In this document: piece by piece, positions 7,647-29,644 of the stretch
Numbering within the stretch: the first letter of the stretch is position 1
Layout of the letters: the number at the start of each line of letters is the position of its first letter
From: Spirochaetaceae bacterium
GTDB lineage: Bacteria > Spirochaetota > Spirochaetia > DSM-27196 > SLST01
Assembly: GCA_007694025.1 (NCBI GenBank)
Contig: RECL01000216.1
Span: forward strand, 1 to 32,421
DNA: 32,421 nt
Direction of reading: 5' to 3'
Position numbers and translations under genes: made by a program
Notes under the pieces: model-generated
What the model was told of the DNA's origin: nothing
What the model saw: the letters and a program-made list of their open reading frames with translations, nothing else
The model's database searches: none

Positions 7647-8010
7647 TCTCGGCCAGTAGCGTGTTCGCGAGGACCCGCGGCCACTCGGGGATGCTCCCGG
7701 CCTCGGTATCGTACATCGCAAGGAGCGTGCCGAACTCGATCCGCGCCTGCTCGAAGTCGTTACGCCTGAAGTGGATAAATCCTATCTCGTAGCGAGCGGT
7801 CGCGACCGCGGCCCGATCGTCGGGGAACCGGTCAAGGATCGCCTGGTAGTACGCAAGCGCAGCGTTCGGGTTTTCGGCGTCCACCGACTCCTGCGCGAGC
7901 TGAATCAGCTCACCAAGCGTGAGTTCTTCCGGTATGTCGGTTGGTACCGTCCGGCACGCGGCAAGTATCACCACTGCAAGAAGAAGCATAAGCGGGAGTC
8001 GAGCGTTCAT
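7627..8010 (-). CDS. TPR-like lipoprotein
   Basis: 'LPLMLLLAVVILAACRTVP' lipobox; TPR-like 'NPNAALAYYQAILDRFPDD...ARYEIGFIHFRRNDFEQARIEFGTLL'. Confidence 0.75.
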   Translation of the reverse strand: MNARLPLMLLLAVVILAACRTVPTDIPEELTLGELIQLAQESVDAENPNAALAYYQAILDRFPDDRAAVATARYEIGFIHFRRNDFEQARIEFGTLLAMYDTEAGSIPEWPRVLANTLLAEISDSGR

Positions 8011-8018
8011 CGAGAGTT

Positions 8019-8047
8019 AATGTACACCTAGTCGACCACGGGTGCAA
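8019..8047 (-). promoter_or_regulatory. Candidate near-leaderless promoter for TPR lipoprotein
   Basis: Minus strand TTGCAC (8047-8042), 17 bp, TACATT (8024-8019), 8 nt, ATG at 8010; no SD. Confidence 0.4.
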
Positions 8048-8067
8048 AGGCCCCGGTCTTGCCTGGC

Positions 8068-8373
8068 CTACTGGTCGTAGACCTCGTCGTTGATAGGGAG
8101 ACTTCGTTTGAGGTCCTGGAGGAACTCCTCCTCGTCGCCCATCGGTTCGTACCGGTCGCACTCGTCCATGCTTCGCCGGATAACCGTGAAATACTTGTAG
8201 AACTTCTCGTCGCCAAGACGCTTTCGCCACTTCCCTGCGGCGCATCGGACCCGCAGCACGTACCGCGACCCGTCTTCGACCGAACTAGGCACCAACTTGC
8301 AGTTTCGGCAGTTGGCGCAGTAGATCTTGCCCTTCGTTTCCGTCAACCGGTCGACTTGTGCGGTCCGACTCAC
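8068..8373 (-). CDS. Conserved-looking small protein with CxxCxxC motif
   Basis: 'GKIYCANCRNCKLV...RVRCAAGKWRKRL...DECDRYEP'; start refined to GTG at 8373, preceded by GAGGAGG. Confidence 0.6.
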   Translation of the reverse strand: MSRTAQVDRLTETKGKIYCANCRNCKLVPSSVEDGSRYVLRVRCAAGKWRKRLGDEKFYKYFTVIRRSMDECDRYEPMGDEEEFLQDLKRSLPINDEVYDQ

Positions 8374-8470
8374 AACTGCCTCCTCTCCCATCGTCCCTTT
8401 CATCATCGATCATATCGAGTTCGGAGTTTAGGAAATGTGACGTATCTCCTTATGCATTCGTAACTTCGGT

Positions 8471-8499
8471 TTGACACCAACCGATCGGCCGACTACACT
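8471..8499 (+). promoter_or_regulatory. Sigma70-like promoter predicting leaderless transcript of DUF554 gene
   Basis: TTGACA (8471-8476), 17-bp spacer, TACACT (8494-8499), 7 nt, ATG at 8507. Confidence 0.75.
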
Positions 8500-8506
8500 C
8501 GCCGTC

Positions 8507-9202
8507 ATGATCGCAACCATCATCAACGCCGCCGCGGTGATCGTCGGTTCGGTGGTCGGTCTGCTCCTCAAGCGGCGGATCGGCGAACGGATTCGGGTAG
8601 TGCTCTTCTCCGGGATTGGGGTGATCACGCTCGTGATCGGTATGTCGATGGCGCTGTCGTTCCAACGGATTCTCTACCTTGCGCTCGCGATCGTGCTCGG
8701 GGGAATAACCGGGACCTGGATCGGGGTCGAGGACGCGATCCTGAAGCTTGGAGAGTGGCTCAAGCGGCGGTTCGGCCAGCAGGACTCAGGCGGAGAGTTT
8801 GCGTACGGCTTTCTCAGCGCATCGGTGCTCTTCTGCGTCGGTGCGATGACGATCATCGGCAGCTTCCAGGCCGGGGTCGACGGCAACTATGAGCTGCTGC
8901 TGACCAAGTCGGTTATGGACGGCTTCATGGCGATCCTGCTCGCCGCGTCGCTCGGCGTCGGCGTTGCGGCGAGCGCGATCGCGATCCTCGTCTACCAGGG
9001 CGGGCTGACGCTGCTTGCGGTGTACTTGAGTCCGCTGGTGATGCCGCTGCTCCTGTCGGAGATCACCGCGGTCGGCGGCGCGCTGATCCTGATGATTGGC
9101 ATCAACCTGCTCGACCTCAAGCGAATCAAGACCGCCGACTACATCCCCGCGATCCTCTGGGTCATCCTCTTCGTTCTGATCGACCCGGTGATCCGGCTGT
9201 AG
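8507..9202 (+). CDS. DUF554-type (YqgA/YdfK-like) integral membrane protein
   Basis: 'MIATIINAAAVIVGSVVGLLLKRRIGERIRVVLFSGIGVITLVIGMSMAL' and 'FCVGAMTIIGSFQAGVDGNYELLLTKSVMDGF'. Confidence 0.85.
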   Translation: MIATIINAAAVIVGSVVGLLLKRRIGERIRVVLFSGIGVITLVIGMSMALSFQRILYLALAIVLGGITGTWIGVEDAILKLGEWLKRRFGQQDSGGEFAYGFLSASVLFCVGAMTIIGSFQAGVDGNYELLLTKSVMDGFMAILLAASLGVGVAASAIAILVYQGGLTLLAVYLSPLVMPLLLSEITAVGGALILMIGINLLDLKRIKTADYIPAILWVILFVLIDPVIRL

Positions 9203-9229
9203 CCGCTGATTCGGCCCCGGCCGCCGGGA

Positions 9230-11770
9230 TCAACCGGCGACGACGAAGCCCGGGACGAACTCGTCTACCAGTTGCGGATGCCGTGGCAGAACGCGCACGC
9301 TCAGGCCCTGACGGCCCGCGGTCGTGCAGCGGATCACCGCGGTAAACGCGTACGTACCGTTGTCGCCCGCGCCCTTTGCGGTCATCGGCGTGCGCGTCGG
9401 GGCGGCGATCTCATCAAGAGTGCTCATCGGGCCGTGATAGAGCTCGACCGTCACGTCGTCGGGTTTGAGATCTCCCAGGTGGATCCGCGTCTGGAGCTCG
9501 ACGTCGTCGCCGACGTTCAGCCGGCGGTCGGGCAGCGCGGGTTCGGTGACGACCTGGATCGACGGCCACGCCTTGCGCAGCCGTGCCATATGCTCGGCGA
9601 GCGACTTCGCCGCCTTGTATGCCCCGGCGCGAACCCGTGCAGCGTTCGCGAGCGCCGGTCGGTAGAAGTGATCGGCGTACTCCATCAGCATCCGGTGACT
9701 CGAGAAGCGCGGTGCAAGCTCGGCCATCGATGCCTTCATCATTCTGATCCATTCGTGCGGTAGCCCGTCGCGGCCACGGTCGAAGTAGAGCGGCAGGATT
9801 TCGCGCTCCAGCAGATCGTAGAGCAGCTTGCTCTCGACCTCATCCTGCTCCTCCTCATCTTCGTAGTACTCTCCGCTGCCGATCGCCCACCCGACGTCGG
9901 GCGTATAGCCCTCCGCCCACCAGCCGTCCAGGATCGAGCAGTTGAGCACGCCGTTGATCGCGGCCTTCATGCCGCTCGTGCCGCTCGCCTCCATCGGTCG
10001 CCGCGGGGTGTTCATCCACAGGTCGGCTCCGCTGACCAGGTACTTCGCGATTCCCATGTCGTAGTTCTCGACAAAGACGATACGGCTACGAAGCTCGGGC
10101 TGCTGCGCAAAGTGGACGATGTCCTTGATCAGGTTCTTCCCGGGAACGTCGTGCGGATGCGCCTTGCCGCTGAAGATGACCTGAACCGGGCGTTCGGTAT
10201 TGGTCAGAAGCTTGTAGAGCCGATCCCGGTCGCGGAACAGCAGCGTCGCGCGCTTGTACGTTGCGAACCGCCGCGCGAAGCTGATCGTGAACGAGTAGGG
10301 CGAGAGCACCTGGTTCGCGGTGCCCAGCTGGGTGCCCGACAGACCGCGACGCTTGAGCTGCGATCGCAGCCGTTCGCGAACGAAGGTCACCAGCCGCTCC
10401 TTGCGCCGTTCGTGCGTCCGCCACAGCTCTTCGTCGCTGACCCGGTCCATCCGGTTCCAGATCTCAAGGTAGGTCGGATCGTCGTAGAAGCGTGGACCGA
10501 AGTAGCGGTCGAGTACGTCCTGGAGGTCATGGTTGAGCCAGGTTCGCGGGTGAACCCCGTTTGTGATGCTCTTGATCGGAACCTCGTGCACGGGAAGACC
10601 CGGCCAGATCTGCTTCCACATGTCGCGGCTGACCGCACCGTGGAGCTCGCTCACCGCGTTGTTGTACGCCGACAGCCTCACCGCCAGGATAGTCATGCAG
10701 AAGTGTTCGAGCTCGTCGTGCGGGTTCTCCCGGCCGAGCGCCATGAAGTCGTGGTAGCTGATCGGGATACCGTCGACGATGCTGTGGAAGTACTTGTGCA
10801 TCAGCTCCGGCGCGAACCGCTCGTTTCCGGCCGGTACCGGCGTGTGCGTCGTGAAGATGCTCGTCGGTCGGATCGCCTCTACCGCCTGGTCAAAGGTGAG
10901 TTTCTCATTGACGATCAGTTCGCGGATCCGCTCTATCGCCAGGAAGGCCGAGTGCCCCTCATTCATGTGCGCGACCGTCGCGTTGATCCCGAGCGCGCGC
11001 AGCGCGCGGATACCGCCGATCCCCAGGAGGATCTCCTGCTGGATGCGCGTCTCCTTCGTCCCGCCGTAGAGCGACGCGGTGATCTGGCGCAGATGCTCGC
11101 TGTTGTCGGGAATATTCGTGTCCAGGAGGTAGAGCGACGCGCGGCCGATCCTCACCTGCCAGACCTGCGCGACAACGACCGATTCGCCGATCTGAACCGT
11201 CACCTTCACCGGCGAGTCGTCGTCGGTGCGACAGACCGACACCGGCATGTTGTACCAGTCGTTTTCCGGGTACGACTCCTGCTGGTATCCGTCGGCGTTC
11301 AGGTACTGCTGGAAGTAGCCTTGCCGGTAGAGCAGCCCGACGCCGATCAGCGGAAGACCCAGGTCGGAGCTCGTCTTCATGTGATCGCCCGACAGAACCC
11401 CCAGGCCTCCGGAGTAGATCGGCAGGCTCACGTCCAGCCCGTACTCCATCGAAAAGTAGGCGACCACGTCTTCGGCGCCATCGGTGTACCACGTATCCCC
11501 GGCCAGGTACGCCTGGAACCTTTCGTACACCCGGTTCAGCGCGGCCAGGAACGAGTCGTCGCCCGACAGTTCCTCGTATCGCTCCTGACTGACCATGCCG
11601 AGCAGTTGCGCAGGATTCTGATGCGACTCCATCCACAGGTCGTAGTCGAGCCGCATGAACAGCATCACCGCGTCGTAGTTCCAGCTCAGCCACAGGTTGT
11701 TCGCGAGCTCCTTCAGCGGCTGAAGCGGCTGTGGGATATTCGGCTCAACCGAAAACGTCGTTACCTTCAA
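9230..11770 (-). CDS. glgP: Alpha-glucan (glycogen) phosphorylase, with N-terminal DUF3417-like region
   Basis: 'LKELANNLWLSWNYDAVMLF', 'EYGLDVSLPIYSGGLGVLSGDH', PLP motif 'EASGTSGMKAAINGVLN'. Start placed at TTG 11770 because GAGGGGGG lies just upstream. Confidence 0.9.
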   Translation of the reverse strand: MKVTTFSVEPNIPQPLQPLKELANNLWLSWNYDAVMLFMRLDYDLWMESHQNPAQLLGMVSQERYEELSGDDSFLAALNRVYERFQAYLAGDTWYTDGAEDVVAYFSMEYGLDVSLPIYSGGLGVLSGDHMKTSSDLGLPLIGVGLLYRQGYFQQYLNADGYQQESYPENDWYNMPVSVCRTDDDSPVKVTVQIGESVVVAQVWQVRIGRASLYLLDTNIPDNSEHLRQITASLYGGTKETRIQQEILLGIGGIRALRALGINATVAHMNEGHSAFLAIERIRELIVNEKLTFDQAVEAIRPTSIFTTHTPVPAGNERFAPELMHKYFHSIVDGIPISYHDFMALGRENPHDELEHFCMTILAVRLSAYNNAVSELHGAVSRDMWKQIWPGLPVHEVPIKSITNGVHPRTWLNHDLQDVLDRYFGPRFYDDPTYLEIWNRMDRVSDEELWRTHERRKERLVTFVRERLRSQLKRRGLSGTQLGTANQVLSPYSFTISFARRFATYKRATLLFRDRDRLYKLLTNTERPVQVIFSGKAHPHDVPGKNLIKDIVHFAQQPELRSRIVFVENYDMGIAKYLVSGADLWMNTPRRPMEASGTSGMKAAINGVLNCSILDGWWAEGYTPDVGWAIGSGEYYEDEEEQDEVESKLLYDLLEREILPLYFDRGRDGLPHEWIRMMKASMAELAPRFSSHRMLMEYADHFYRPALANAARVRAGAYKAAKSLAEHMARLRKAWPSIQVVTEPALPDRRLNVGDDVELQTRIHLGDLKPDDVTVELYHGPMSTLDEIAAPTRTPMTAKGAGDNGTYAFTAVIRCTTAGRQGLSVRVLPRHPQLVDEFVPGFVVAG

Positions 11771-11841
11771 GAGACCCCCCTCGGCAGAAGCCCGATTCGT
11801 TGAGTATATAGTCGCTGAACCGCGACCGCCGTTCAAGCGCT

Positions 11842-13173
11842 CTACGCGTGATCTATGAGTGCCTCGCGCGGTTCGTCAACGATCGCGAGCACCGTACACC
11901 GGCCCGCGACCTCCGGGAGCGCCGCGATCTCGCGAACCGCATCCGCGAGGTTCGCTTCGACGACGCGGTGCGTTATCAGCACGACTGGGGCGAGCGCGTC
12001 GCCGTTGTCTGCCATCTCGTCCTGGTGCATTCCGGCGATGCTGATCCCGTGCGTGCCGAAGTGATCGGCGAGCTCGGACAGCACGCCCGGCCGGTCATCG
12101 ACGAGCGCGCGAACGTAGAACCGACGCGCGGTCTGCGTTGCGTCGGCAATCTGGGCGGCCGGCGTCTGGTCGGGCCAGATCCCCGGCGCCGCGAAGACCG
12201 CCGGGTACCCGCCGACCGCGATCGACACAACGTCGGCGACGATCGCTCCGGCGGTTGCCGACCCGCCTGCTCCGCGACCGTAGTACATCGTGTGTCCGGT
12301 AGGGTACGAGTAGACGCTCACCGCGTTGAACGGCCCGGAGACCCACGCCAGCGGGTGCGCCTGCGGCACGAGCGCCGGACCCACGCGTAGCGACAGACCG
12401 GAGGCGGTTCGTTCGGCGATCGCGAGGAGCTTGGGCACGTAGCCGAGTCGTCCGGCCATCTGAACGTCGATCAGGTCGAGCGAATCGATGCCGCCGACCC
12501 GGATCGAATCGTAGTCGACGCGGACCCCGAACGCGAGCGCAGCCATGATCGCTATCTTGTGCGCGCTGTCGTGCCCACCGACGTCGAGCGCGGGGTCGGC
12601 CTCCGCAAGCCCGTCGCGTTGCGCTTCGGCGAGCGCATCGTCGTAAGAGATCGACCGGCGGATCATCTGCGTGAGGATGTAGTTGCACGTCCCGTTGACA
12701 ATCCCGTAGATTGCGTCGAAGCGTGCGCCGGCGAGGCCGTCGTAGATCGCACGAACGATGGGGACTCCGCCGCCGCAGCTCGCCTCGAACGCGAGCGACA
12801 CCCCGGCCGCGTGCGCCGCCGCAAAGAGCTCACGGCCGCGATGCGCGAGGAGCGCCTTGTTAGCGGTGACGACGTGCTTCCCGGCCGACAACGCGCGTTC
12901 GATCAGCGTGAACGCGAAGCCGGTGCCCCCGACAAGCTCGATCACGACGTCAATCTCCGGCGACGAGAGCACCGGTTCCACGTCTTGCGACAGCAGCGCG
13001 TCGGGTAGCCCGATCCGCCGTGCACGGCTGAGGTCCTTGTCGACGACCGCTGAGAGCCTTATATCGATCGAGTAGCGCGTGCGGATAGCGTCGGCGTTCT
13101 CGATCAGATGAAGCGCCGTCGCTCCGCCGACCGTACCGCAGCCGACAACGGCGATATTCATGCGTGTGTGCAT
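11842..13173 (-). CDS. hom: Homoserine dehydrogenase with C-terminal ACT domain
   Basis: 'MNIAVVGCGTVGGATALHL', 'VTANKALLA', 'GIVNGTCNYILTQM', ACT region 'DDRPGVLSELADHFGTHGISI'. Start either ATG 13173 or ATG 13161. Confidence 0.93.
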   Translation of the reverse strand: MHTRMNIAVVGCGTVGGATALHLIENADAIRTRYSIDIRLSAVVDKDLSRARRIGLPDALLSQDVEPVLSSPEIDVVIELVGGTGFAFTLIERALSAGKHVVTANKALLAHRGRELFAAAHAAGVSLAFEASCGGGVPIVRAIYDGLAGARFDAIYGIVNGTCNYILTQMIRRSISYDDALAEAQRDGLAEADPALDVGGHDSAHKIAIMAALAFGVRVDYDSIRVGGIDSLDLIDVQMAGRLGYVPKLLAIAERTASGLSLRVGPALVPQAHPLAWVSGPFNAVSVYSYPTGHTMYYGRGAGGSATAGAIVADVVSIAVGGYPAVFAAPGIWPDQTPAAQIADATQTARRFYVRALVDDRPGVLSELADHFGTHGISIAGMHQDEMADNGDALAPVVLITHRVVEANLADAVREIAALPEVAGRCTVLAIVDEPREALIDHA

Positions 13174-13182
13174 CGCGTGGGC

Positions 13183-13211
13183 ATAGTACGGAGCGCTCAG
13201 CACGCTGTCAA
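13183..13211 (-). promoter_or_regulatory. Sigma70-like promoter of hom
   Basis: Minus strand TTGACA (13211-13206), 17 bp, TACTAT (13188-13183), 9 nt, ATG at 13173; no SD. Confidence 0.75.
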
Positions 13212-13272
13212 CCGATCGATCGTCGCCGATCGATCGCTGTCAACCGATCGATCGCGGCCAACCGATCGATCG
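13205..13272. repeat. Degenerate 18-bp tandem array with four CCGATCGATCG cores (8 GATC sites)
   Basis: Cores at 13212, 13226, 13244 and 13262; units CTGTCAACCGATCGATCG / TCGCCGATCGATCG / CTGTCAACCGATCGATCG / CGGCCAACCGATCGATCG. Confidence 0.95.
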
Positions 13273-13300
13273 TGACGAAGGCGGCGGTGCAGGCTACAAT
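13272..13300 (+). promoter_or_regulatory. Sigma70-like promoter predicting leaderless transcript of FecR-domain gene
   Basis: GTGACG (13272-13277), 17 bp, TACAAT (13295-13300), 6 nt, ATG at 13307. Confidence 0.6.
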
Positions 13301-13306
13301 GCAATC

Positions 13307-14413
13307 ATGACATCCTGCTTCAGCTATCGTCGGTCGCGTAGGCGGCTGTTCGTGAACGCCGTGGTTCTTCTGGTGCTGATGGTCGGCGCGCATCCGGCGC
13401 ACGCGCGCGACCAGATCGGTGGTGTGAGCTTCTTCGATGGTGATCCGCTGTTGATCCGCGACGGCGTGCGGTTGGCGCCCGGGATCGACTTCGGGACGCG
13501 CGTGGAGAACTTCGACGCGTTCATCACCGATGAGAGGAGCTCGGTGGAGATCGTTCTGGATCGGGCGACCGGAATCGACGCGACGATCACGATCGCTGCG
13601 TCGACGCGGCTCTACCTTGATGTAACTGCGATTCGTGCGGAGCAGGACGCGACGGTGGAGCTCGTCGGCGGAACCGTGTCCGTGGTTGCCCGAAGCCTGG
13701 GCCGTGCGTCGCGGTTCAGCGTGACAACGCCGACCGCGGTGTTCGGCGTGCGCGGAACGACCTTCACGATCGTCGGTGCCGAAGGAGGCGATCTCCTGGT
13801 AGTCGCCGACGAAGGCATGGTCGAGGTGACCGACGCCGACGGTCGAATCGCGTTCGCATCACCCGGGGAGGCGGTCGAAATCGACCCGGAGGAGGCGATC
13901 CTGCGGACCCGGCGGTATGACCGCGCGCGGCGCGCCCTGTTCGTCGACGAATGGCGGCGCGAGAGGCGGGCGGTGCTGCTGCGGCGCGCCGAACGACTGA
14001 TCCCTCTCTACGCCGAGCGGTACGCGATCGCGCGCGAGCGGTTCATCGCGCACTACCGACAGCTGCTCGCGCGGCGCGACGTGTTCGACGCGTGGATGGA
14101 GGAGGGGCGTCGCGGCCTTGCGGGCAGGCCGATCGAGCAGGCCCACGCGGCACGCGAGATCTTCGGTCTTATCCGCCAGATCCGGGTGAGCTCGCGCGCG
14201 TATGAGTCGCTGCTTGATCAGCTCGATCGGATCGGGGGAGTTGTCGCCGGAACCCGACTCGATCACGACGTGTTCAGGCAGGTTCACAACGACCGGCCGA
14301 TCTTTGACGAGCGTTTCGCAGAGGTCCGATCGATCCTCAAGGCGTACGCGCTGCGCCACGGCGGTGTGGCCCCTCGATTCCTGACCGACGAGGCCCCGGC
14401 CGATGTCGACTGA
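13307..14413 (+). CDS. Secreted FecR-domain protein
   Basis: Signal peptide 'RRLFVNAVVLLVLMVGAHPAHA'; FecR-type 'ATVELVGGTVSVVARSLGRASRFSVTTPTAVFGVRGTTFTI'. Confidence 0.8.
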   Translation: MTSCFSYRRSRRRLFVNAVVLLVLMVGAHPAHARDQIGGVSFFDGDPLLIRDGVRLAPGIDFGTRVENFDAFITDERSSVEIVLDRATGIDATITIAASTRLYLDVTAIRAEQDATVELVGGTVSVVARSLGRASRFSVTTPTAVFGVRGTTFTIVGAEGGDLLVVADEGMVEVTDADGRIAFASPGEAVEIDPEEAILRTRRYDRARRALFVDEWRRERRAVLLRRAERLIPLYAERYAIARERFIAHYRQLLARRDVFDAWMEEGRRGLAGRPIEQAHAAREIFGLIRQIRVSSRAYESLLDQLDRIGGVVAGTRLDHDVFRQVHNDRPIFDERFAEVRSILKAYALRHGGVAPRFLTDEAPADVD

Positions 14414-15155
14414 GTTTTACGCCGCGCTCGCCGAGCACTACGACGCGCTGTTTCGCGTTGACGAGACTGCCCTTCGGTTCCTGACCAACCACGGCGCCGT
14501 CGGCGGCGCGCGCGTCCTTGACGCCGCGTGTGGAAGCGGCGCGTACACGCGCGCGCTCGTCGACCGCGGAGTCGACGCGTTCGGGACCGATCTGTCCGAC
14601 GCGATGATCGAACGCGCGCGCTCCTGCGGACTGGCCGCCGACCGGTGCGAAGTCGCCGACATGCTCGATGCCCGCGATCATCGCGCGGCGCCCTTCGATC
14701 TAGTCTTCTGCATAGGGAACTCGATCGCGCACCTGTCGTCGTACGACCACGTTTCGCGGTTCTTCGCGAGCGCGGCCGATGCGCTACGCGCCGCAGGCAC
14801 GCTGGTCGTGCAGTTCGTCGACGTGTCGGACCTGCCGGTCGACGGCGAACAGCGCCTGCCCGCGTTACAGGGTCCCGGCGTGGAGTTCGAGCGGACCTAC
14901 CGGCGCGTCGGTACCGACGCGATCCGGTTTGACGCGCGGTTGATCGTGGAACCGACGGGGCCGGATCGCCCGGCTTCGGGCGCTCCCCGGACGGCCGATC
15001 TGTCGCAGCGCCTCCTGCTGCTGTCGGCCGATCGAATCGAGCGGATGCTCTGCGCTTGCGGGTTCGCTTCGGTTCTGGTATACGGTGGGTTCGACGCGGG
15101 GCAACCTCGGCCGGACTCGTGGGTCCGGGTGGTGGTCGCCTCGCGCGCGTCCTGA
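14403..15155 (+). CDS. Class I SAM-dependent methyltransferase
   Basis: Motif I 'VLDAACGSGAYTRALVDRG', 'FGTDLSDAMIERAR', 'FDLVFCIGNSIAHLSS'; overlaps the upstream CDS by 11 nt. Confidence 0.85.
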   Translation: MSTEFYAALAEHYDALFRVDETALRFLTNHGAVGGARVLDAACGSGAYTRALVDRGVDAFGTDLSDAMIERARSCGLAADRCEVADMLDARDHRAAPFDLVFCIGNSIAHLSSYDHVSRFFASAADALRAAGTLVVQFVDVSDLPVDGEQRLPALQGPGVEFERTYRRVGTDAIRFDARLIVEPTGPDRPASGAPRTADLSQRLLLLSADRIERMLCACGFASVLVYGGFDAGQPRPDSWVRVVVASRAS

Positions 15156-15170
15156 GACCGTGGAGGAACC

Positions 15171-16364
15171 GTGTCCCGACTGAAATTCGCCGGCGCCGAC
15201 TACGCGGGAGCGCTCGGCTTCTTTGTCTACGCGTCGAGCGTGGTCGTCACGCCGATCGTGCTGCTACGACTCGGCGAAGACCTTGCGTTCGGTCTGGCCG
15301 AAGGCGGCGGGATCGAGGCGGTCCGCGCCTTCTTCCTGCTTGCGATCCTGATCGCGAGCGGTGCGGCCGCCGCGCGTTGGGGCAAGATTCCGACGCTCGC
15401 CGTCGGAGGGCTCGTACTTGCGGTCGGCCTGTTCGCGTACGCCGCCGCCCCGAGCTACGCGATCGTGCTTGCCGCGGTGGTTCTGGTCGGGCTCGGCGGC
15501 GGGATCCTTGAGGCGCTCATAAACCCGCTGATCCAGGACGCACACCCCCACGACTCAGGGCGCTACCTGAACGTCGTCAACGCGTTCTTCAGCGTCGGCG
15601 TGCTGGTCTCGGTGGTGGTCGTAGGCGACCTACTGACGCGCGGCGTGTCGTGGCGGGTGCTTGTCGCGGGAGTCGGCGTACTGGCCGTCGGTACCGCGGC
15701 GCTGTTCGGACTCGCGAGCCGCCGCGACCGGCCGAACCGGCCGGCCGCGGCCGCGGAAAAGCCCGGCGCCGGGTTTCTTGGTTCGGCCGCGCGGATCGTG
15801 CGCGAACCGCTGTTCTGGATCTATTCGGTCGCGATGTTCTGCGGCGGCGGTGCCGAAGGCGCGTTCACGTTCTGGAGCGCGAGCTACATCCAGATCCACT
15901 TCGACGCCGTTGCGCGCGCGGGCGCGATCGGTACCGCGGCGTTTGCGGCGGGTATGGTCGTCGGTCGCATCGGGTTCGGCCGTATGGTTCGCCAGGGTGG
16001 ACTCCAGACGCTGATCATCGCGTCGGCGCTCGCCGGCGTCGTGCTGAGCATCATCGCGTACCGCGTCGACGGGATGGGTGCGCTCTACGCGGTGCTGTTT
16101 GCAGCGGGCGTATCGATCGCGTGCTTCTGGCCGAGCATCCAGTCGCACGCGGCGACTCGCGTGCCGCACGACTCGACCACGCTGTTCGTACTGCTGTCGT
16201 GCGCGGGGATCCCGGGCTTCGGCCTCACATCGTGGGCTATGGGTCTGATCGCGGAGCGGGCCGGTCTGCGCGCGAGCCTTCTGGTTATCCCGGCGCTGCT
16301 GACGGTGCTCGCCGTCGCTATGGTCGCCGGGTCGCGGATCGGTAGCCGGCCCGAGGATCGGTAG
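15171..16364 (+). CDS. MFS transporter
   Basis: Multiple TM segments, 'LGGGILEALINPLIQDAHP'; SD GGAGG before GTG. Confidence 0.85.
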   Translation: MSRLKFAGADYAGALGFFVYASSVVVTPIVLLRLGEDLAFGLAEGGGIEAVRAFFLLAILIASGAAAARWGKIPTLAVGGLVLAVGLFAYAAAPSYAIVLAAVVLVGLGGGILEALINPLIQDAHPHDSGRYLNVVNAFFSVGVLVSVVVVGDLLTRGVSWRVLVAGVGVLAVGTAALFGLASRRDRPNRPAAAAEKPGAGFLGSAARIVREPLFWIYSVAMFCGGGAEGAFTFWSASYIQIHFDAVARAGAIGTAAFAAGMVVGRIGFGRMVRQGGLQTLIIASALAGVVLSIIAYRVDGMGALYAVLFAAGVSIACFWPSIQSHAATRVPHDSTTLFVLLSCAGIPGFGLTSWAMGLIAERAGLRASLLVIPALLTVLAVAMVAGSRIGSRPEDR

Positions 16365-16380
16365 CCGGCCCGAGGATCGG
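16337..16380. repeat. 19-bp tandem duplication (2.3 copies) across the MFS stop codon
   Basis: GATCGGTAGCCGGCCCGAG at 16337-16355 and 16356-16374, then GATCGG. Confidence 0.98.
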
Positions 16381-16387
16381 GAACGCG

Positions 16388-17905: not shown

Positions 17906-18029
17906 CACCGCTCCCACGACATGATACCCGCGAAAGCGGCGATGGGCAAACACTTTGGGCGGAATCGGTCGCGCAGCCGGCCCACCGACCCGCCTTTCCG
18001 ACAGCCGCGCTACGATGGTATGCTTGCGT

Positions 18030-20872: not shown

Positions 20873-21464
20873 CGGTGCGTTCCACCTTGAGAGACTCGAA
20901 CACCAGGATTCTGGCGTCGGGCCGACGCGCGCTCCCGACGGGTAGGTCTGCTTTTCGCTCAAGCATCCGCAACGTCGTCTCGACGTCCCACCGCTGTTCG
21001 ATCGCGACCTGTGGCAGGAAGACCGCGCGCTTTGGGCCGACCTCTATGATGATCCCGTGCGTCCCGAGCACTATCCGGTCGATGCTCGATTCGCGCGCGC
21101 GCGCGAGGATCGACAACGATAGCGATATTCCTGGCAGTTCCGCACCGGTGACGGGGCCGAAGCGATAGTCGGCGAGCGCCGCGTCGCGGATGACCTCCGG
21201 AAGGATTTCGCGAAGCGTCCGTGACCCGGCGAACGTACCGATGCAGCCGCGTAGGTCCGCGGCGTTGTACAGCGTCGCAAACGCACCGTAGCGGGCGTCA
21301 AGGACGTGAGCTACCGGCGCCAGACGCGTCGTCGTGGGTTTGGGGAGCGGTTCATCGGTTACGGCGGCACGAAGGACCTCCTCGCCGTAATCAAGGAGCG
21401 AATCGCGTTCCCGGCGGTCGAGGCTCGGTAGCATCGACGCATCCGACGCGTCACGCGCGGTCAC
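20862..21464 (-). CDS. AmmeMemoRadiSam system protein A (AMMECR1 domain)
   Basis: 'LRGCIGTFAGSRTLREILPEVIRDAALADYRFGPVTGAELPGISLSLSIL'; GTG start forms a GTGA overlap with the Memo stop. Confidence 0.93.
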   Translation of the reverse strand: MTARDASDASMLPSLDRRERDSLLDYGEEVLRAAVTDEPLPKPTTTRLAPVAHVLDARYGAFATLYNAADLRGCIGTFAGSRTLREILPEVIRDAALADYRFGPVTGAELPGISLSLSILARARESSIDRIVLGTHGIIIEVGPKRAVFLPQVAIEQRWDVETTLRMLERKADLPVGSARRPDARILVFESLKVERTDAM

Positions 21465-22378
21465 TGTTTGAGGCCCTCGGGACCAGAGACGATTGTCGCG
21501 TAGCAGACAAACTCCGCGCTCGGGTTGTCGGCGCTGTTCGAGTTGTAGTAGAGCGCCCGATCGCCGGCGTATCCCCAACGGGAGGCAAGGTCGGTCGCGA
21601 CGGCGATCGGGTACCTGCCGCAGACCGTTGTCTGCCGCTTGCCAACGATGCGCCAGACCGCTTCGGCGTCGGCCGACGCGATCGCGTCGGCCAGAGCAAG
21701 GTCATCGGCTGCTACCCGCTGTTCGAGTTCGGGTCCGGCCGTGGTTCCGTACGGAGCGTAGGCAAAGCGCGATCCGTAGTGAGTGAAGTCGCTCGATACC
21801 AGTACGAGTGTCCGCTCGGGTCCGCCGGCGCGCTCGATCGCGGAGTGGAGCTCGCCGGCGCGCTCCCCGACGCTCCGGCGGCTTGTGAGTTCGGGGACCA
21901 GCACGACGGCGAGCCGAACCGCATCCCCGAACAGGTATCGCACGTAGGGTAACAGCAGTTCGACCGCGTGCTCGCGCTCGATCGCGTCGTCGGCAAAGTC
22001 GACCACCGCCGCGTCGTCGGTCCAGAATTCGGGCGCGCCGGCGATCGGACCAAGGGGGGTCTGGTGCTCGCCGAAGCGTTCTCCATGCAGTCGGTCGGGA
22101 GTCAGTCTGGCAGCGTGGCTTGGCGCAAGGATCACGACCCGGTCGATCGATTGAGCATCGACCGTCGCGAACGCGGCCGCCATCCCCGCGGCCGAATACG
22201 CGAGTCCGGCGTGCGGGACCACCGCGAGCCTGACTGCGCGGTCCACCGCGAATCGGGTGCCGTGACCGCGAGCGGCCGCGGCGAGCGAGTTCTGCAGCAA
22301 CCGCCGGAGGCTGATCGGGTCAGAATCGTACCAACTGCCAGCGTAGCGGCATCGGTTTGTCGTACGATCGTGGGGCAT
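21461..22378 (-). CDS. AmmeMemoRadiSam system protein B (Memo-like)
   Basis: 'RYAGSWYDSDPISLRRLL', 'AVVPHAGLAYSA', 'ILAPSHAA', 'EREHAVELLLPYV', 'VLVSSDFTHYG'. Confidence 0.93.
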   Translation of the reverse strand: MPHDRTTNRCRYAGSWYDSDPISLRRLLQNSLAAAARGHGTRFAVDRAVRLAVVPHAGLAYSAAGMAAAFATVDAQSIDRVVILAPSHAARLTPDRLHGERFGEHQTPLGPIAGAPEFWTDDAAVVDFADDAIEREHAVELLLPYVRYLFGDAVRLAVVLVPELTSRRSVGERAGELHSAIERAGGPERTLVLVSSDFTHYGSRFAYAPYGTTAGPELEQRVAADDLALADAIASADAEAVWRIVGKRQTTVCGRYPIAVATDLASRWGYAGDRALYYNSNSADNPSAEFVCYATIVSGPEGLKQ

Positions 22379-22384
22379 ACCTCG

Positions 22385-22413
22385 AGTATACGGTGCGTCG
22401 GGCGCTCAGTGAA
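22385..22413 (-). promoter_or_regulatory. Sigma70-like promoter predicting leaderless AmmeMemoRadiSam operon mRNA
   Basis: Minus strand TTCACT (22413-22408), 17 bp, TATACT (22390-22385), 6 nt, ATG at 22378. Confidence 0.65.
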
Positions 22414-22446
22414 CCGTCGACATCGGCCCGGCCGCCTGAAACGAGC

Positions 22447-22475
22447 AAAAAAACGGCCGCCCCGATGGGGCGGCC
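22447..22475 (-). terminator. Rho-independent terminator of the MalK-type ATPase gene
   Basis: Perfect 9-bp stem GGCCGCCCC-(ATC)-GGGGCGGCC followed by G then T7 on the minus strand. Confidence 0.93.
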
Positions 22476-22515
22476 TGAAGAAGCTTGAGTCTGCGGTCTG
22501 AAGCGACCGGCAGGC

Positions 22516-23616
<1,101 letters not shown>

Positions 23617-23648
23617 TGATACCTCCGTATCTTATTCTATAGGCGTTC

Positions 23649-23678
23649 ATTGTACGGGCAGATTGCCGATTCTGTCAA
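23649..23678 (-). promoter_or_regulatory. Sigma70-like promoter of the MalK-type gene (leadered)
   Basis: Minus strand TTGACA (23678-23673), 18 bp, TACAAT (23654-23649), then about 32 nt with SD before ATG 23616. Confidence 0.75.
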
Positions 23679-23752
23679 ACAGAAGATGTGCCGATGTACC
23701 CAGTTTTTCGGCCGGTTCGGCAGTCCGACCATGAAAGCAAGGAGCAGACCGA

Positions 23753-24862
23753 GTGAACGACCGTCGCAGAAGTCCTTCGCCCCGACCGATCGTGCGACTT
23801 GTCGCCGTCCTCGCGCTGAGCGGGGTGATCGTACTCGTCGTTGCGATCGTCGCCGCGGTGGCCGCGGCGCACCTGACAAGCGGGCTCCTGTTTCAGCCCG
23901 CCGGGTTGTCCGGGCCGGTGTTCGACGCGGAACGCGATGACGTGGACGCCGTCGTCTCCGAGATCGTTTTCGAGATCAGACCCAATCAGACGTTGCGAAC
24001 AATCAGCAGGAACATGGTAGACCTTGGGCTCGCGCGCAACGCGCTCGTGATCGAGGTGTACGGTCGGTTCAGAGAGTACGATCGGCGACTCCAGGCAGGG
24101 CGCTACCTGGTCACTCCGACGATGGCGCCCGTCGAGATCATCGAAAAAATCATCGCGGGCGACGCAGTCTTCGATGAGTTGACGATCACGATCCCCGAAG
24201 GGTGGACGGTCGTGCAGATCGCCGACCACCTGGACCGGGTGGGGCTGTTCACGGCCGACCGTTTCCTGGAAGCCGCGCTGATGCAGGATGCGTACCGCGA
24301 CTTCGCCTTGCTTTCCGACCTTCCTGACGGCAAGATCCTGGACGGATATCTGTTTCCCGATACCTACCGAATCTTCGCCGACAGCACTCCCGAGTCGGTC
24401 GTCCGTCGAATGCTCTCCAATCTCCACGCGCGATTCACCGCCGGCATGCTCGCCCAGGCCGCCGAGCGTGGCATGTCGGCGCACGAGGTTCTGACGCTTG
24501 CTTCGATCGTCCAGGCGGAGGCGGGTGGTGCGTACCAGATGGCCGACGTGGCCGGCGTGTTCTCCAACCGGCTGCGCGACCGGATCAGGCTCGAATCCGA
24601 CGCGACGGTCAACTACGCGCTCGGCACCAGCAAGCGCCAGCCCACGTTTGCCGACGTTGCGGTACAGCATCCGTACAACACGTACCAGAACTTCGGGCTG
24701 CCGCCCGGTCCGATCGGAAGCCCCGGCATGGACGCGATACGCGCGACGATCGCGCCGAACGTCCACGATTTCTTCTTCTTCCTTCATCCCCCCGATCGGA
24801 GAATCGTGCTGTCACGGACCTTCGCCGAGCACCTGCAGAACAAGGCCCGATACCTCGACTGA
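23753..24862 (+). CDS. mltG: Endolytic transglycosylase MltG (YceG-like)
   Basis: Single N-terminal TM; 'TIPEGWTVVQIADHL', 'GYLFPDTYRI', 'LASIVQAEAG', 'YNTYQNFGLPPGPIGSPG'; SD AAGGAG before GTG. Confidence 0.93.
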   Translation: MNDRRRSPSPRPIVRLVAVLALSGVIVLVVAIVAAVAAAHLTSGLLFQPAGLSGPVFDAERDDVDAVVSEIVFEIRPNQTLRTISRNMVDLGLARNALVIEVYGRFREYDRRLQAGRYLVTPTMAPVEIIEKIIAGDAVFDELTITIPEGWTVVQIADHLDRVGLFTADRFLEAALMQDAYRDFALLSDLPDGKILDGYLFPDTYRIFADSTPESVVRRMLSNLHARFTAGMLAQAAERGMSAHEVLTLASIVQAEAGGAYQMADVAGVFSNRLRDRIRLESDATVNYALGTSKRQPTFADVAVQHPYNTYQNFGLPPGPIGSPGMDAIRATIAPNVHDFFFFLHPPDRRIVLSRTFAEHLQNKARYLD

Positions 24863-24865
24863 GGG

Positions 24866-26104
24866 CTACTGTTCCTGTTGGAGAAGCCACGCGCGGATGC
24901 TGCCATCCATATCCCGTGCCTGTGGGGTCCCGCGTATCTCCCGGGCTAGCCACGGACGCACGACCTGTTCGGTCAGTTCGCCCCAGTGGCGCGGGCTCGG
25001 TTCGGGAAAGCGAAGCAGGCCAGCCGAAGGGATTCTGCCCGCGAGTTCGGGGTACGCGGTTGGCATGAACCGCTCGGTGACGCGCCAGAGCGCCGGAAAC
25101 CCGCCAGCGAGCCCGAATGAGTCGCTGCGGTCCCGGTGAGACCCCGCGATGATCGCGCTCTGCGTGTCCGCGGTGAACAACCACGTCAGGAAGCCCTCGG
25201 CACCGCGCGGGTTCGGCGCGTGCCGGGGAATACCGACGTAGACGACGTCCTCAAGCACGTTGATAGCGTGTTCGGATCCCAGCCAGCGGAAACGCAGTCC
25301 GGCTCGTCGCGCGTCGCTGAGCCCGAAGAAGCCCGCCGAATCGGTATAGCCGTACGCGATGCGCCCCTGGCGAACGAGCTCGACCGACGGCTCGTAGAGA
25401 TAGCGGTCGGCAAAGGACGTCGCGGCGCCGAGCCCGCCGTTCCACGTATCGATCCAGCGCTGCGCTGCGGTTACCCCGGCAACGACCCCCGCGAACGGAA
25501 GCCGGGGCGTACCGTCGTCGTTCTCCCGGACCCGCATCCCGTGGATTCGCGCGAGCTCGTAGAGGAACCGGTCGTTCCAGAGCGGCGAGTAGGAGACGCG
25601 CGTGAGGCGCCCGGCGGCGATCTGGTTGAAGCCTTCGCTTCGCGCCTGCATTTCGTCGGGCGTGATGATGATCGGCTCGCCGTAGGGCGGGATGCGGCCC
25701 GCGAAATAGATCAGCGGGAGGTTGAACGATACCGGCAGGAGGTATTGCCGACCGTCGCGGCTTCCCGCCGCGACGAGCGGCGCGTAGAAAGCGGTCAGGT
25801 CGATACCGGAGCGTATCAGCCGGTCCAACGGTCGCAACAGCTCTGCGGTGTGTCGGTCTTCGATGTACGTGGATACCACCAGATCGGGCTGCGACGGCGC
25901 CAGACGAAGCTGCCGGCCGATGTCGGTCCGGTAGACGAGCTCGATGACCGGTCGGTCGTGCGTTGCGTTGAACCGTTCGACGATCGGGGCCATTTCCGCG
26001 ATATCGGTCCAGAGCACGACCGACGCCGGCTGCGCGCAGCCGACCAGGAACAGACCGATTGTGATCGATAGAAGCAGGGCGTGGGGCAAACGGACGATGG
26101 GCAC
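24866..26104 (-). CDS. Extracellular solute-binding lipoprotein (ABC transporter substrate-binding type)
   Basis: Lipobox 'SITIGLFLVGCAQP'; 'IVERFNATHDRPVIELVYRTD' and overall family-1 SBP-like organisation. Confidence 0.75.
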   Translation of the reverse strand: MPIVRLPHALLLSITIGLFLVGCAQPASVVLWTDIAEMAPIVERFNATHDRPVIELVYRTDIGRQLRLAPSQPDLVVSTYIEDRHTAELLRPLDRLIRSGIDLTAFYAPLVAAGSRDGRQYLLPVSFNLPLIYFAGRIPPYGEPIIITPDEMQARSEGFNQIAAGRLTRVSYSPLWNDRFLYELARIHGMRVRENDDGTPRLPFAGVVAGVTAAQRWIDTWNGGLGAATSFADRYLYEPSVELVRQGRIAYGYTDSAGFFGLSDARRAGLRFRWLGSEHAINVLEDVVYVGIPRHAPNPRGAEGFLTWLFTADTQSAIIAGSHRDRSDSFGLAGGFPALWRVTERFMPTAYPELAGRIPSAGLLRFPEPSPRHWGELTEQVVRPWLAREIRGTPQARDMDGSIRAWLLQQEQ

Positions 26105-26109
26105 GCGCC

Positions 26110-26138
26110 ACTCTACGATCGCGAGCCGACGCTGTCAA
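26110..26138 (-). promoter_or_regulatory. Sigma70-like promoter predicting leaderless SBP transcript
   Basis: Minus strand TTGACA (26138-26133), 17 bp, TAGAGT (26115-26110), 5 nt, GTG at 26104. Confidence 0.6.
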
Positions 26139-26162
26139 TCGTACGCGTAGAAGAAGTATACT
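26132..26162 (+). promoter_or_regulatory. Candidate promoter predicting transcript starting at GTG 26169
   Basis: TATACT (26157-26162) 6 nt before GTG 26169; weak -35 CTGTCA (26132-26137) at a 19-bp spacing. Confidence 0.5.
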
Positions 26163-26168
26163 ATCCGG

Positions 26169-26663
26169 GTGCAGACCAAGGATGAACAGATCATGCAGCT
26201 GATCGATCAGATCGGTCAGCACTATCGCGCGAACATTGGTAACCGCTACGTGCGCTCGGCGCTGCGAACGCTACCGCTCGAGCACAAGGAGTGGGACCTC
26301 ATCGAAAGCGTCACGGAGAAGGCGAGCTACTACCAGCATCAGGGGTACCACCTGGACGAGCTCTACGACCGGATACTGGTCCTTGGGCGTTTTGTCTATC
26401 ACGCGCGCCGCGAGCTGCAGCCCAAGCTTCGCATGCTGCTGACCGGCTCGGGCAGCGGTCCGGCCCCGACTGGAAACGACCGGGTCCTCCGCGATATGGC
26501 GGTGAACAACTTCGCGTCGAACCTGTCGATCCTCGCCGACATGGTCAACCAGCTCTATTCGTGCGCGGTCGCGATCGACGACCAGATGACGCGTCCTCGC
26601 GCTCCCGTCCATACGACGGTCCCTGAGCTCAAGGAGCTCGGCGGCTACCTGGTCCCCAGATAA
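26169..26663 (+). CDS. Hypothetical protein, about 156-164 aa, helical
   Basis: Open frame with coding-like bias; start GTG 26169 (leaderless) or ATG 26193 (preceded by AAGGA). Confidence 0.65.
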   Translation: MQTKDEQIMQLIDQIGQHYRANIGNRYVRSALRTLPLEHKEWDLIESVTEKASYYQHQGYHLDELYDRILVLGRFVYHARRELQPKLRMLLTGSGSGPAPTGNDRVLRDMAVNNFASNLSILADMVNQLYSCAVAIDDQMTRPRAPVHTTVPELKELGGYLVPR

Positions 26664-26686
26664 CCGCCGCCCCGCCTGCGGCTGAT

Positions 26687-27967
26687 CTACGGCGCAAGCG
26701 ACCGCGCGGTCGCTGCTATCGCGTCGAACAGCGCTTCCAGATCCGACTCGTCGATCGTCGAAAACGCGACGCGCAGGTACTCCGATCCGATCGCGATCGT
26801 ACCGATCCCCTGGTCCAAGAGCGACGTCCGCAGTCGTTCGGCGTCGATACCGTCGCACGCGAACGCCATGAAGTAGCCGCTGTTGAACGGCAGCGGTGAC
26901 AGCGGTCCCAGGTCGATACGCTGCAGGATCCGACGGACCGCCTCATAGCGGCTCTTGAGAACCTCTCGCGCGGACGCCTTTTCGTCGTGGTAGGTGTCTG
27001 ACTTCAGCGCATGGATCAGCATGCTCTGCGCGATTCGGCTGCTGTTGGACACCGACGCGCGGATATTGCCCATCAGCTTCCGCTCGAGCGCGTCCAGGTG
27101 CTCCGTGGCGAGTCCCGCTCCGGCGAACGTGACGAAGCCGATCCGGAATCCCCACGCGAAGTCTTCCTTGGTCGCGCCGTCGACCTTCACCGCCAGAATT
27201 CGATCGTGTGCTCCCGCGAGCCGTGCGAACAGGCTCTCCTCCAGCAGGTTCTCTTCGTAGAGCAGCCCAAAGTACGCGTCGTCGCAGACCACCAGGATAT
27301 CGCAGCCGCCTGCAGCGCGCTCGGCGAGCGCCGACACGATTCGGTCCGCCTCCGACACAGTCGGCGAGTAGCCGGTCGGGTTGTTCGGGAAGTTGAGCAG
27401 GACGATCGCCTTCGTGCGTCCCGCGAGCGCGTCGGACAATCCGTCGACGTTGAATCCGCCGGCCGGATCGAACAACGGAAACGTGACAACCTGCGCGCCG
27501 ATCCGCACCTCGGCCATCAGGCGGTAGTTGCCCCAGAACAGATCGGGCAGTACGAACGCGTCTCCGTCGTCCAGGAAGAGCTCTCCGATGTGAAACAGTC
27601 CGTTTGTCAGCCCACCGGTGACCATCGGATTGCTTGTCGGGACCCCGGACAGGCTCGGGTTCTTGCGAAGCATTTCCTGCTTCCACAGCGAACGCAGCTC
27701 GGGTACCCCGGGCGTCGGGGCGTACGCGACCGTCTCGGTCGGCGTCAGTCCGCTCGTGAGCCGCTGGAGGCCCGACAGAACCATTGGCTCGCCGTCACTG
27801 ACAGCCATTCCGACGGTTGCGTTGAAACGGTGCGCGCGCGCGTTCGCCTCCGAGGTCTGTGCGACGATTCCCTTCGGGAAGTACATCCTGCGGCCCAGGC
27901 CGGAAAGCAGCCGTCCGGCGACCGTCGTGTCGAGCACGGTGTTGAGTTGTGATGCGAGTGGGTTCAT
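26687..27967 (-). CDS. PLP-dependent aminotransferase class I/II
   Basis: 'LLNFPNNPTGYSPT', 'CDDAYFGLLYEE', 'GATKEDFAWGFRIGF'. Start refined to ATG 27967 (MNPLASQLN). Confidence 0.9.
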   Translation of the reverse strand: MNPLASQLNTVLDTTVAGRLLSGLGRRMYFPKGIVAQTSEANARAHRFNATVGMAVSDGEPMVLSGLQRLTSGLTPTETVAYAPTPGVPELRSLWKQEMLRKNPSLSGVPTSNPMVTGGLTNGLFHIGELFLDDGDAFVLPDLFWGNYRLMAEVRIGAQVVTFPLFDPAGGFNVDGLSDALAGRTKAIVLLNFPNNPTGYSPTVSEADRIVSALAERAAGGCDILVVCDDAYFGLLYEENLLEESLFARLAGAHDRILAVKVDGATKEDFAWGFRIGFVTFAGAGLATEHLDALERKLMGNIRASVSNSSRIAQSMLIHALKSDTYHDEKASAREVLKSRYEAVRRILQRIDLGPLSPLPFNSGYFMAFACDGIDAERLRTSLLDQGIGTIAIGSEYLRVAFSTIDESDLEALFDAIAATARSLAP

Positions 27968-27974
27968 GAGCCGG

Positions 27975-28002
27975 ATAATACCAATTGTCGATTCGTTGAC
28001 AT
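27975..28002 (-). promoter_or_regulatory. Candidate promoter predicting leaderless aminotransferase transcript
   Basis: Minus strand ATGTCA (28002-27997), 16 bp, TATTAT (27980-27975), 7 nt, ATG 27967. Confidence 0.55.
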
Positions 28003-28024
28003 AGCACCCCGTGTCACGTAGTGT
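27996..28024 (+). promoter_or_regulatory. Candidate promoter predicting leaderless transcript starting at ATG 28031
   Basis: TTGACA (27996-28001), 17 bp, TAGTGT (28019-28024), 6 nt, ATG 28031. Confidence 0.5.
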
Positions 28025-28030
28025 AGCGAC

Positions 28031-29644
28031 ATGGGCGACAATGCCGCCAAGCGCGACGAATCGGCGAGTGAGCCTGCCGGCCTGATCCAACGTCTTGTCG
28101 CGCTGTTCACCGGTGCGGGTGATCCCGAGCGCGAGAAACGTCGCCTGCTCAAGGAACTCGGTAAGGATCTCCAACGCCAGCGGTTCAAGTTCTACAAGCC
28201 CAAGTCGTCAGAGGCGCTGCCCCCTCTTGCCCGAGTCTTCTTCGACGCGTACAAGATCGTGGCTACCGCGCAGACGCTGCTCGCCGGGGCCGACAGCTCG
28301 AACGCGCTGAAGACGATCCTGATCGAAGTTCACCACAACCCGGAACAGGCACGGCTGCGGGAGGAGCTCAACGACGACGCGATCCGCCGCGCATCGAAGA
28401 CGATGGAGCCGAAGCAGCTGACCGCGCATCTGAAGGATGCCATGGTCGGATACTTCAGCGGATTCGACTCAACGACCGTGCGCCGCATCAACGATACGTA
28501 CAACCTGATGCAGACTTTTCTGGCGTTCGCGAAGTTCGATTTCTACTTTGTGCTGCGGAAGTTCGACGCGGGAATCCAGGAAGGCAATCTTGCCTACACG
28601 CCCCGATTCGACGCGATAAACGCGGAGTACGTCAGCGATGATATCAAGGACTTCCTGGAAGTGCTGCTGCCGCTCGATAAGGATGCCGAATGGGGTCCCG
28701 TGTTCGATGCGCTCCAGGAGTACAAGGGGGTCGAGGTAGTCGACCGCGACGCGTGGAAGAAAGCGCTCGTGGTGCTCACGAACATTGGCCGTTCAGGCGT
28801 GCTGACCAAGATCGTCCAGCACGTCGACCAGAACCCCCAGTACCGCCCCGAGGTCCGCGTTTTCAGGACGCAGATCGTCGAAGGCTACCTGAATCTGTTG
28901 AAGACGCAGGTGGAGGCGTCGATTCAGAGGCTTGCCAAGGAGCGGCGAACGCAGAAGAAGGATCAGCTTCTGATGGCCGTGTTCGGTACGACGGCGATTC
29001 AGCGATCAAAGCACTACACCGACGCGACGAACATGCTGTTCACGAAGCGCAACCTGGCCGGATTTCTGCACATCGACGCGGTCAACTTCCTGAAGGCGTT
29101 TCTGGTGGACTACTTCAAGGGAGAGGTCCGCAAGGTCGTCAGCGACATCCTGATCGTCCGCGGCGAATGGTCGGACACCGTACTGTCCAAGCAGCTGTCC
29201 GATGCGTACTACAGCGCGATGAACGTCGCTCAGGCGGTCTCCGAGTTCGACGACTCGCTCGGCGAAGAGGGCGAACTGGGGATGAAGCTGAAGAAGGCGT
29301 CGGGGCGCGTCGTCGAACGCGACCCGGCGTCGGCCAAACTCCTTCGGCAGTTGCTGCAGGAGATCAATGAGAGGGCGTTGGTGATGATCAACGAGTCGGC
29401 GCAGAACCTCATCGTGATTGGCAAGGTAACCAAGACGCTGATCGAGGATCTGTCGCGCGAGCGTCCGGAGGTACTCCTGAACTGGAAGGACCTTCAAGGA
29501 TACTCCGAGCAGCCGCTCGCGCCCCAGCTGACAACGATCTACAAGCGGATCTACTACTTCGTGCAGCTCATGCAGATGCACGTGCCGACTCAGACACAAC
29601 GGCCGGGGTCAGTACCCCCTCGATCTCCAGCAGGCTCCGCTTGA
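28031..29644 (+). CDS. Conserved-looking protein of unknown function, 537 aa (possibly the spirochaetal DUF5312 type)
   Basis: Long open frame with strong coding character, no recognisable catalytic motifs; family suggestion is from memory and low confidence. Confidence 0.7.
   Translation: MGDNAAKRDESASEPAGLIQRLVALFTGAGDPEREKRRLLKELGKDLQRQRFKFYKPKSSEALPPLARVFFDAYKIVATAQTLLAGADSSNALKTILIEVHHNPEQARLREELNDDAIRRASKTMEPKQLTAHLKDAMVGYFSGFDSTTVRRINDTYNLMQTFLAFAKFDFYFVLRKFDAGIQEGNLAYTPRFDAINAEYVSDDIKDFLEVLLPLDKDAEWGPVFDALQEYKGVEVVDRDAWKKALVVLTNIGRSGVLTKIVQHVDQNPQYRPEVRVFRTQIVEGYLNLLKTQVEASIQRLAKERRTQKKDQLLMAVFGTTAIQRSKHYTDATNMLFTKRNLAGFLHIDAVNFLKAFLVDYFKGEVRKVVSDILIVRGEWSDTVLSKQLSDAYYSAMNVAQAVSEFDDSLGEEGELGMKLKKASGRVVERDPASAKLLRQLLQEINERALVMINESAQNLIVIGKVTKTLIEDLSRERPEVLLNWKDLQGYSEQPLAPQLTTIYKRIYYFVQLMQMHVPTQTQRPGSVPPRSPAGSA

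What the first reader, a model, noticed from the sequence alone, without database searches (positions are those of the whole stretch)
8010..28033. Recurrent leaderless promoter architecture: -10 box 5-9 nt before the start codon at about nine transcription-unit starts
Gap between the -10 3' end and the start codon: 8507(+) 7 nt; 13307(+) 6; 22378(-) 6; 26104(-) 5; 26169(+) 6; 27967(-) 7; 28031(+) 6; 8010(-) 8; 13173(-) 9. Most have a TTGACA-like -35 at 16-17 bp. Since +1 normally lies about 7 nt after the -10, transcription should begin at or within about 3 nt of the start codon, and none has a usable SD. Other genes here (trxA, 4583, 4706, 8373, 11770, 15171, 17905, 23616) have clear SD leaders. 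Two initiation modes appear to coexist, with leaderless starts preferentially at first genes of units. Leaderless mRNAs are well known in Actinobacteria, Deinococcus and archaea; I do not know of a systematic description in a spirochaete-like genome.
Basis: partly seen in the sequence, partly recalled or inferred. Interest (0 to 1): 0.85.

Follow-up and report, generated by a model that had tools for sequence, protein, structure and literature searches.

The report
Leaderless promoters in a soda-lake spirochaete
Many genes in this uncultured spirochaete have their promoter so close to the start codon that the messenger RNA should begin at the start codon itself, with no leader; this start-up mode is real and widespread in the group, but is already known from other bacteria, including one spirochaete.

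Summary
All nine -10 boxes lie 5-9 nt before the start codon as described; about 6% per start is expected by chance. The architecture is genome-wide. In 683 kb of the same genome, TANNNT peaks sharply 12 nt before the start codon of divergent first genes (29 seen, 5.9 expected, P = 9e-12). A TTGAC box 17 bp upstream emerges without being selected for, and none of the 28 leaderless-type starts has a Shine-Dalgarno (SD) motif. Genes inside units show almost no peak and use SD. A rough estimate is about 10% of all genes and 14-19% of divergent first genes. Orthologues in other genera and families keep the box at the same distance (DUF554 in 10 of 10 genomes). An AT-rich spirochaete control shows no peak. 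So the leaderless reading is strongly supported by sequence, though no transcript was measured. The novelty claim is wrong: leaderless genes were tabulated for spirochaetes in 2011 and mapped by dRNA-seq in Leptospira in 2017. A less certain extra: back-to-back leaderless genes cluster 62-64 bp apart, where the two -35 boxes fall on the same bases; clear in one genome set (23 of 69), not significant in a second (6 of 33).

The parts
8494..8507 (+). -10 TACACT (8494-8499), 7 nt, ATG 8507 of a DUF554 gene; -35 TTGACA at 8471-8476, spacer 17
   Evidence: Pfam DUF554; same arrangement in all 10 relatives found
13295..13307 (+). -10 TACAAT, 6 nt, ATG 13307 of a FecR-domain gene; -35 weak
   Evidence: no orthologue seen in the loci examined, conservation untested
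22378..22390 (-). -10 TATACT, 6 nt, ATG 22378 of a Memo-family gene; second gene on this strand, 137 nt behind 22516-23616
   Evidence: conserved only in the near relative G004
26104..26115 (-). -10 TAGAGT, 5 nt, GTG 26104; -35 TTGACA at 26133-26138, spacer 17
   Evidence: TAGAGT near the start in all three relatives aligned, gap clear in L055 and L057
26157..26169 (+). -10 TATACT, 6 nt, GTG 26169; divergent from 26104, 64 bp between the start codons; its -35 position falls on the TTGACA of the other strand
   Evidence: leaderless spacing in 4 of 5 relatives, SD-like leader in L057
27967..27980 (-). -10 TATTAT, 7 nt, ATG 27967 of an aminotransferase gene
   Evidence: -10 within 6-8 nt of the ATG in every relative shown
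28019..28031 (+). -10 TAGTGT, 6 nt, ATG 28031 of a DUF5312 gene; -35 TTGACA at 27996-28001; divergent from 27967, 63 bp between the start codons
   Evidence: kept in relatives of three families at 49-65% protein identity
8010..8024 (-). -10 TACATT, 8 nt, ATG 8010 of a TPR gene; -35 TTGCAC, spacer 17; internal promoter behind the ORF starting at 8373(-)
   Evidence: TACATT 7-8 nt before ATG in most relatives
13173..13188 (-). -10 TACTAT, 9 nt, ATG 13173 of homoserine dehydrogenase; -35 TTGACA, spacer 17
   Evidence: similar spacing in most relatives, L125 differs
23600..23640 (-). contrast: ATG 23616 of an ABC transporter ATPase (MalK-type OB domain) with a clear SD leader (GGAGGT)

Best explanation
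These are ordinary housekeeping (sigma70-type) promoters placed so that transcription starts at, or within 0-3 nt of, the first base of the start codon. The mRNA is leaderless and is translated without a Shine-Dalgarno contact, presumably by direct binding of the ribosome to the 5'-terminal AUG or GUG. The same genome uses SD leaders for genes inside units and for many first genes. Shown here: the box geometry, its genome-wide excess at first genes, absence of SD at these starts, conservation in orthologues. Inferred: the transcription start position and the translation mechanism.
For: All nine sites re-read. In 683 kb of this genome, with starts called from coding potential only, TANNNT at distance 11-13 at divergent first genes is 29 vs 5.9 expected (P 8.7e-12); with alternative starts allowed the profile jumps to 25 of 166 at d=12 against about 6-7 elsewhere. 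Sites picked on TANNNT alone show T.64 T.46 G.49 A.36 C.60 exactly 17 bp upstream. None of 28 has an SD motif; closely spaced internal genes have SD in 50% and only 6 vs 1.7 TANNNT. Whole genome: TTG-N19-21-TANNNT-N5-7-ATG 195 hits against 55 with the ATG moved 9 nt away and 52 for the reversed pattern. Orthologues keep box and spacing: DUF554 in 10 of 10 genomes, DUF5312 and aminotransferase in relatives down to about 50% identity, homoserine dehydrogenase and TPR gene in most. Negative control: AT-rich genome G100, no excess (2 vs 3.0; pattern 319 vs 330).
Against: No transcript or protein start was measured. At 8010 and 13173 (gaps 8 and 9) a 1-3 nt leader is as likely as none. One orthologue of 26169 (L057) has an SD-like leader instead and one homoserine dehydrogenase (L125) has the box well upstream of the aligned start, so the mode is not obligatory. 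The genome is a draft bin of 449 contigs, 94% complete, and my gene caller is simple.
Confidence: 0.92

Rival explanations
1. The boxes are by-products of an AT-rich, weakly structured stretch before start codons, not promoters.
For: AT enrichment before start codons of non-SD genes is known and is partly ascribed to S1 binding or low structure (PMC5397173).
Against: The peak is 2-3 nt wide, a TTGAC box appears at the right spacing, hits are at unit starts rather than inside units, and box and spacing stay while flanks change.
Confidence: 0.03
2. The start codons are misplaced: true starts lie downstream with SD leaders, and these are normal leadered promoters.
For: The coding-potential caller picked later starts for 13173, 13307, 27967, 8010 and 22378.
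Against: Orthologues align from residue 1 or close to it right after the box (8507, 26104, 26169, 27967, 28031, 13173), and the excess holds when only best coding-potential starts are used.
Confidence: 0.03
3. The promoters are real but transcription starts a few nt away from the standard 7 nt spacing, giving short leaders or starts inside the first codon.
For: TSS choice varies by a few nt in bacteria (general knowledge); gaps here run from 5 to 9 nt.
Against: The modal gap of 6 nt puts the A of ATG at the expected +1, and ATG dominates these sites (53 of 67).
Confidence: 0.06

Closest known systems
Leaderless (TA-led) genes of Actinobacteria and Deinococcus-Thermus (Zheng et al. 2011, PMC3160421)
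   Same: TANNNT about 12 nt before the start codon, high-GC genomes, coexistence with SD-led genes
   Different: Estimated share here is lower (about 10% of genes against 19% and 39% on average); different phylum
Leptospira interrogans leaderless transcripts (Zhukova et al. 2017, PMC5243855)
   Same: Spirochaete with many mRNAs starting at or near the start codon, measured by dRNA-seq
   Different: A distant spirochaete in which no common sigma70-type motif was found upstream of the start sites; here -10 and -35 boxes are plain
Bidirectional promoters of E. coli and Salmonella (PMC12825309, PMC10268837)
   Same: One short stretch drives divergent transcription through symmetric elements
   Different: Those share the -10 and have start sites 7-25 bp apart; the pairs here would share the -35 position with start sites about 63 bp apart, transcribing away from each other

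Membership tests
Bacterial leaderless (TA-led) genes | -10-like TANNNT about 12 nt before the start codon, above chance | tested here: met
   29 vs 5.9 expected in 166 divergent first genes; 195 vs 55 whole-genome pattern
Bacterial leaderless (TA-led) genes | No Shine-Dalgarno motif at these starts | tested here: met
   0 of 28, against 23% of divergent first genes overall and 50% of internal genes
Bacterial leaderless (TA-led) genes | Preference for first genes of transcription units | tested here: met
   14% excess at divergent first genes, 2% at internal genes
Bacterial leaderless (TA-led) genes | Arrangement conserved in orthologues | tested here: met
   seven sites tested beyond a near relative
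Bacterial leaderless (TA-led) genes | Transcription start at the start codon | not testable with these tools
   Needs TSS mapping
Bacterial leaderless (TA-led) genes | Translation of the leaderless mRNA from its 5' codon | not testable with these tools
   Needs reporters or ribosome profiling
Symmetric bidirectional promoters (shared -10) | Divergent start sites 7-25 bp apart with a shared -10 | tested here: not met
   Window pairs have start codons 63 and 64 bp apart with separate -10 boxes

The most novel reading that the evidence does not exclude
In high-GC Spirochaetales, leaderless genes form a standard compact module of two divergent genes 62-64 bp apart with both -35 boxes on the same bases, so that the two RNA polymerases exclude each other and leaderless starts allow a very short divergent intergenic region.
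Probability: 0.35. Interest if true: 0.5.

Novelty: new member of a known kind. Interest (0 to 1): 0.36.

Why it matters
It extends sequence evidence for frequent leaderless initiation to uncultured free-living spirochaetes and much of the class Spirochaetia. Gene callers that model only SD sites would misplace these starts. It offers a comparative set in which the mode is kept or switched between orthologues, and a testable geometry for mutually exclusive divergent promoters.

Tried and rejected
The strict TTGACA/TATAAT/ATG pattern is too rare, 2 hits. Pattern controls outside the phylum failed: E. coli was not held for whole-record search and a Deinococcus deserti plasmid was too small (2 vs 1), so negative controls come from inside the phylum. 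Intergenic lengths from gene calls alone showed no clear 63-65 bp peak in 83 divergent pairs; the peak appeared only with the two-sided promoter pattern and was not significant in the second genome set (6 of 33, P = 0.09). CGATCG is not over-represented in the genome against a Markov expectation. Rfam found no RNA family in the window.

Full report
What was checked. All nine sites were re-read from the sequence and the stated gaps are exact. Five have a good -35 box at 17 bp; four have a weak one. By chance a TANNNT falls in a 5-position window upstream of a unit start in 5.9% of cases in this genome, so nine among about 16 unit starts is not chance (P about 7e-8).

Where it comes from. The window is a contig of a 4.08 Mb draft genome of 449 contigs. 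Its nearest named relatives are metagenome-assembled Spirochaetaceae and Spirochaetales genomes, several with isolate names beginning CSSed; I take these to be soda-lake sediment samples, from memory. GC of the sampled part is 64.6%.

Genome-wide test. I called genes in 683 kb of the same genome from codon usage alone, with no promoter or SD information, and counted TANNNT by distance from the called start. At 166 genes whose upstream neighbour points the other way, distances 11-13 hold 29 boxes against 5.9 expected (P 8.7e-12). Allowing alternative starts, 51 against 19.3, with 25 at distance 12 alone. Genes less than 30 nt behind a same-strand gene show 6 against 1.7 and carry SD motifs in 50% of cases. 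None of the 28 leaderless-type starts at divergent first genes has an SD motif. When the hits are aligned on the -10 box, T T G A C appears exactly 17 bp upstream without having been selected (0.64, 0.46, 0.49, 0.36, 0.60) and a G precedes the box in 61%. These are promoters, not just AT-rich stretches. The start codon is ATG in 53 of 67.

How many. The whole genome has 195 matches to TTG-N19-21-TANNNT-N5-7-ATG, against 55 when the ATG is moved 9 nt further and 52 for the pattern read backwards. Correcting the excess of about 140 for the share of sites with TTG (13 of 28) and with ATG (53 of 67) gives roughly 380 genes, about 10% of an estimated 3,600. This is a rough figure. It is above the range published for six spirochaete genomes (1.8-6.9%, PMC3160421).

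Taxonomic spread. The same pair of patterns gives ratios of about 2.0-3.5 in the genus and family, 1.4-4.4 in the order, 8.0 in G089 and 2-3 in several other families of the class. Ratios are about 1.0 in family f12 (small AT-rich genomes), G044 and G070. Lower-GC genomes have more chance matches, so ratios cannot be compared strictly.

Conservation. Orthologues of 28031 (DUF5312) and 27967 (aminotransferase) keep the -10 box 6-8 nt before the ATG in relatives of three families down to about 50% protein identity while the rest of the intergenic region changes. DUF554 (8507) keeps it in 10 of 10 genomes of four families, to 57% identity. Homoserine dehydrogenase (13173) and the TPR gene (8010) keep it in most. 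The Memo gene (22378) has a counterpart only in G004, with the same arrangement, and 13307 had none in the loci examined. In L057 the orthologue of 26169 has an SD-like leader instead, so the mode can switch.

Mechanism. Shown: box geometry, excess at first genes, absence of SD, conservation. Inferred from the standard 7 nt from -10 to +1: transcription starts at the A or G of the start codon, or 1-3 nt before it where the gap is 7-9. Inferred from work on other bacteria: translation of such mRNAs depends on the 5'-terminal start codon rather than on SD pairing. No specialised factor was looked for.

Divergent pairs. The window has two divergent pairs of leaderless starts, 64 bp apart (26104/26169) and 63 bp apart (27967/28031). 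With a 6 nt gap and 17 bp spacer on both sides, 64 bp is where the two -35 hexamers coincide. In 18 genomes the two-sided pattern gave 69 places against 11 for the reversed control; 23 of 69 have 62-64 bp between the start codons (6.7 expected if even; 19 of 62 after dropping orthologous repeats, P about 4e-6), and both strands have better than random -35 matches there. I read ORFs at 20 of these places; most have long ORFs on both sides. In 13 further genomes, of which several showed no excess over the reversed control (33 places against 16), 6 of 33 fell in the peak (P 0.09), so this is not replicated at significance. E. coli bidirectional promoters share the -10 instead (PMC12825309, PMC10268837).

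Prior knowledge. Leaderless genes are a known kind: 207 of 953 bacterial genomes in 2011, Spirochaetes included (PMC3160421); 21.6% of bacterial species in a set of 4,769 genomes predicted by GeneMarkS-2 (as cited in PMC9581028); measured in Leptospira interrogans (PMC5243855). No held paper describes it for Spirochaeta relatives, but the library holds only open papers.

Noticed in passing
window 13203-13284: Between homoserine dehydrogenase and the FecR-domain gene lies a run of degenerate repeats (CCGATCGATCG with CTGTCAAC, i.e. TTGACAGC on the other strand), copies spaced 14 and 18 bp, overlapping the -35 of the 13173 promoter; possibly an operator array.
   Followed up: partly
window 26104-26169 and 27967-28031: Two divergent gene pairs with 64 and 63 bp between start codons, so that the -35 positions of both promoters overlap.
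   Followed up: yes
L057, orthologue of window 26169: One orthologue has an SD-like leader (AGAAGGACGGTGC ATG) where the others are leaderless: a switch of initiation mode within a family.
   Followed up: no
window 8068-8373 (-): Small cysteine-containing ORF of about 100 aa with a GGAGAGGAGG SD, directly upstream of the TPR gene that has its own leaderless promoter.
   Followed up: no
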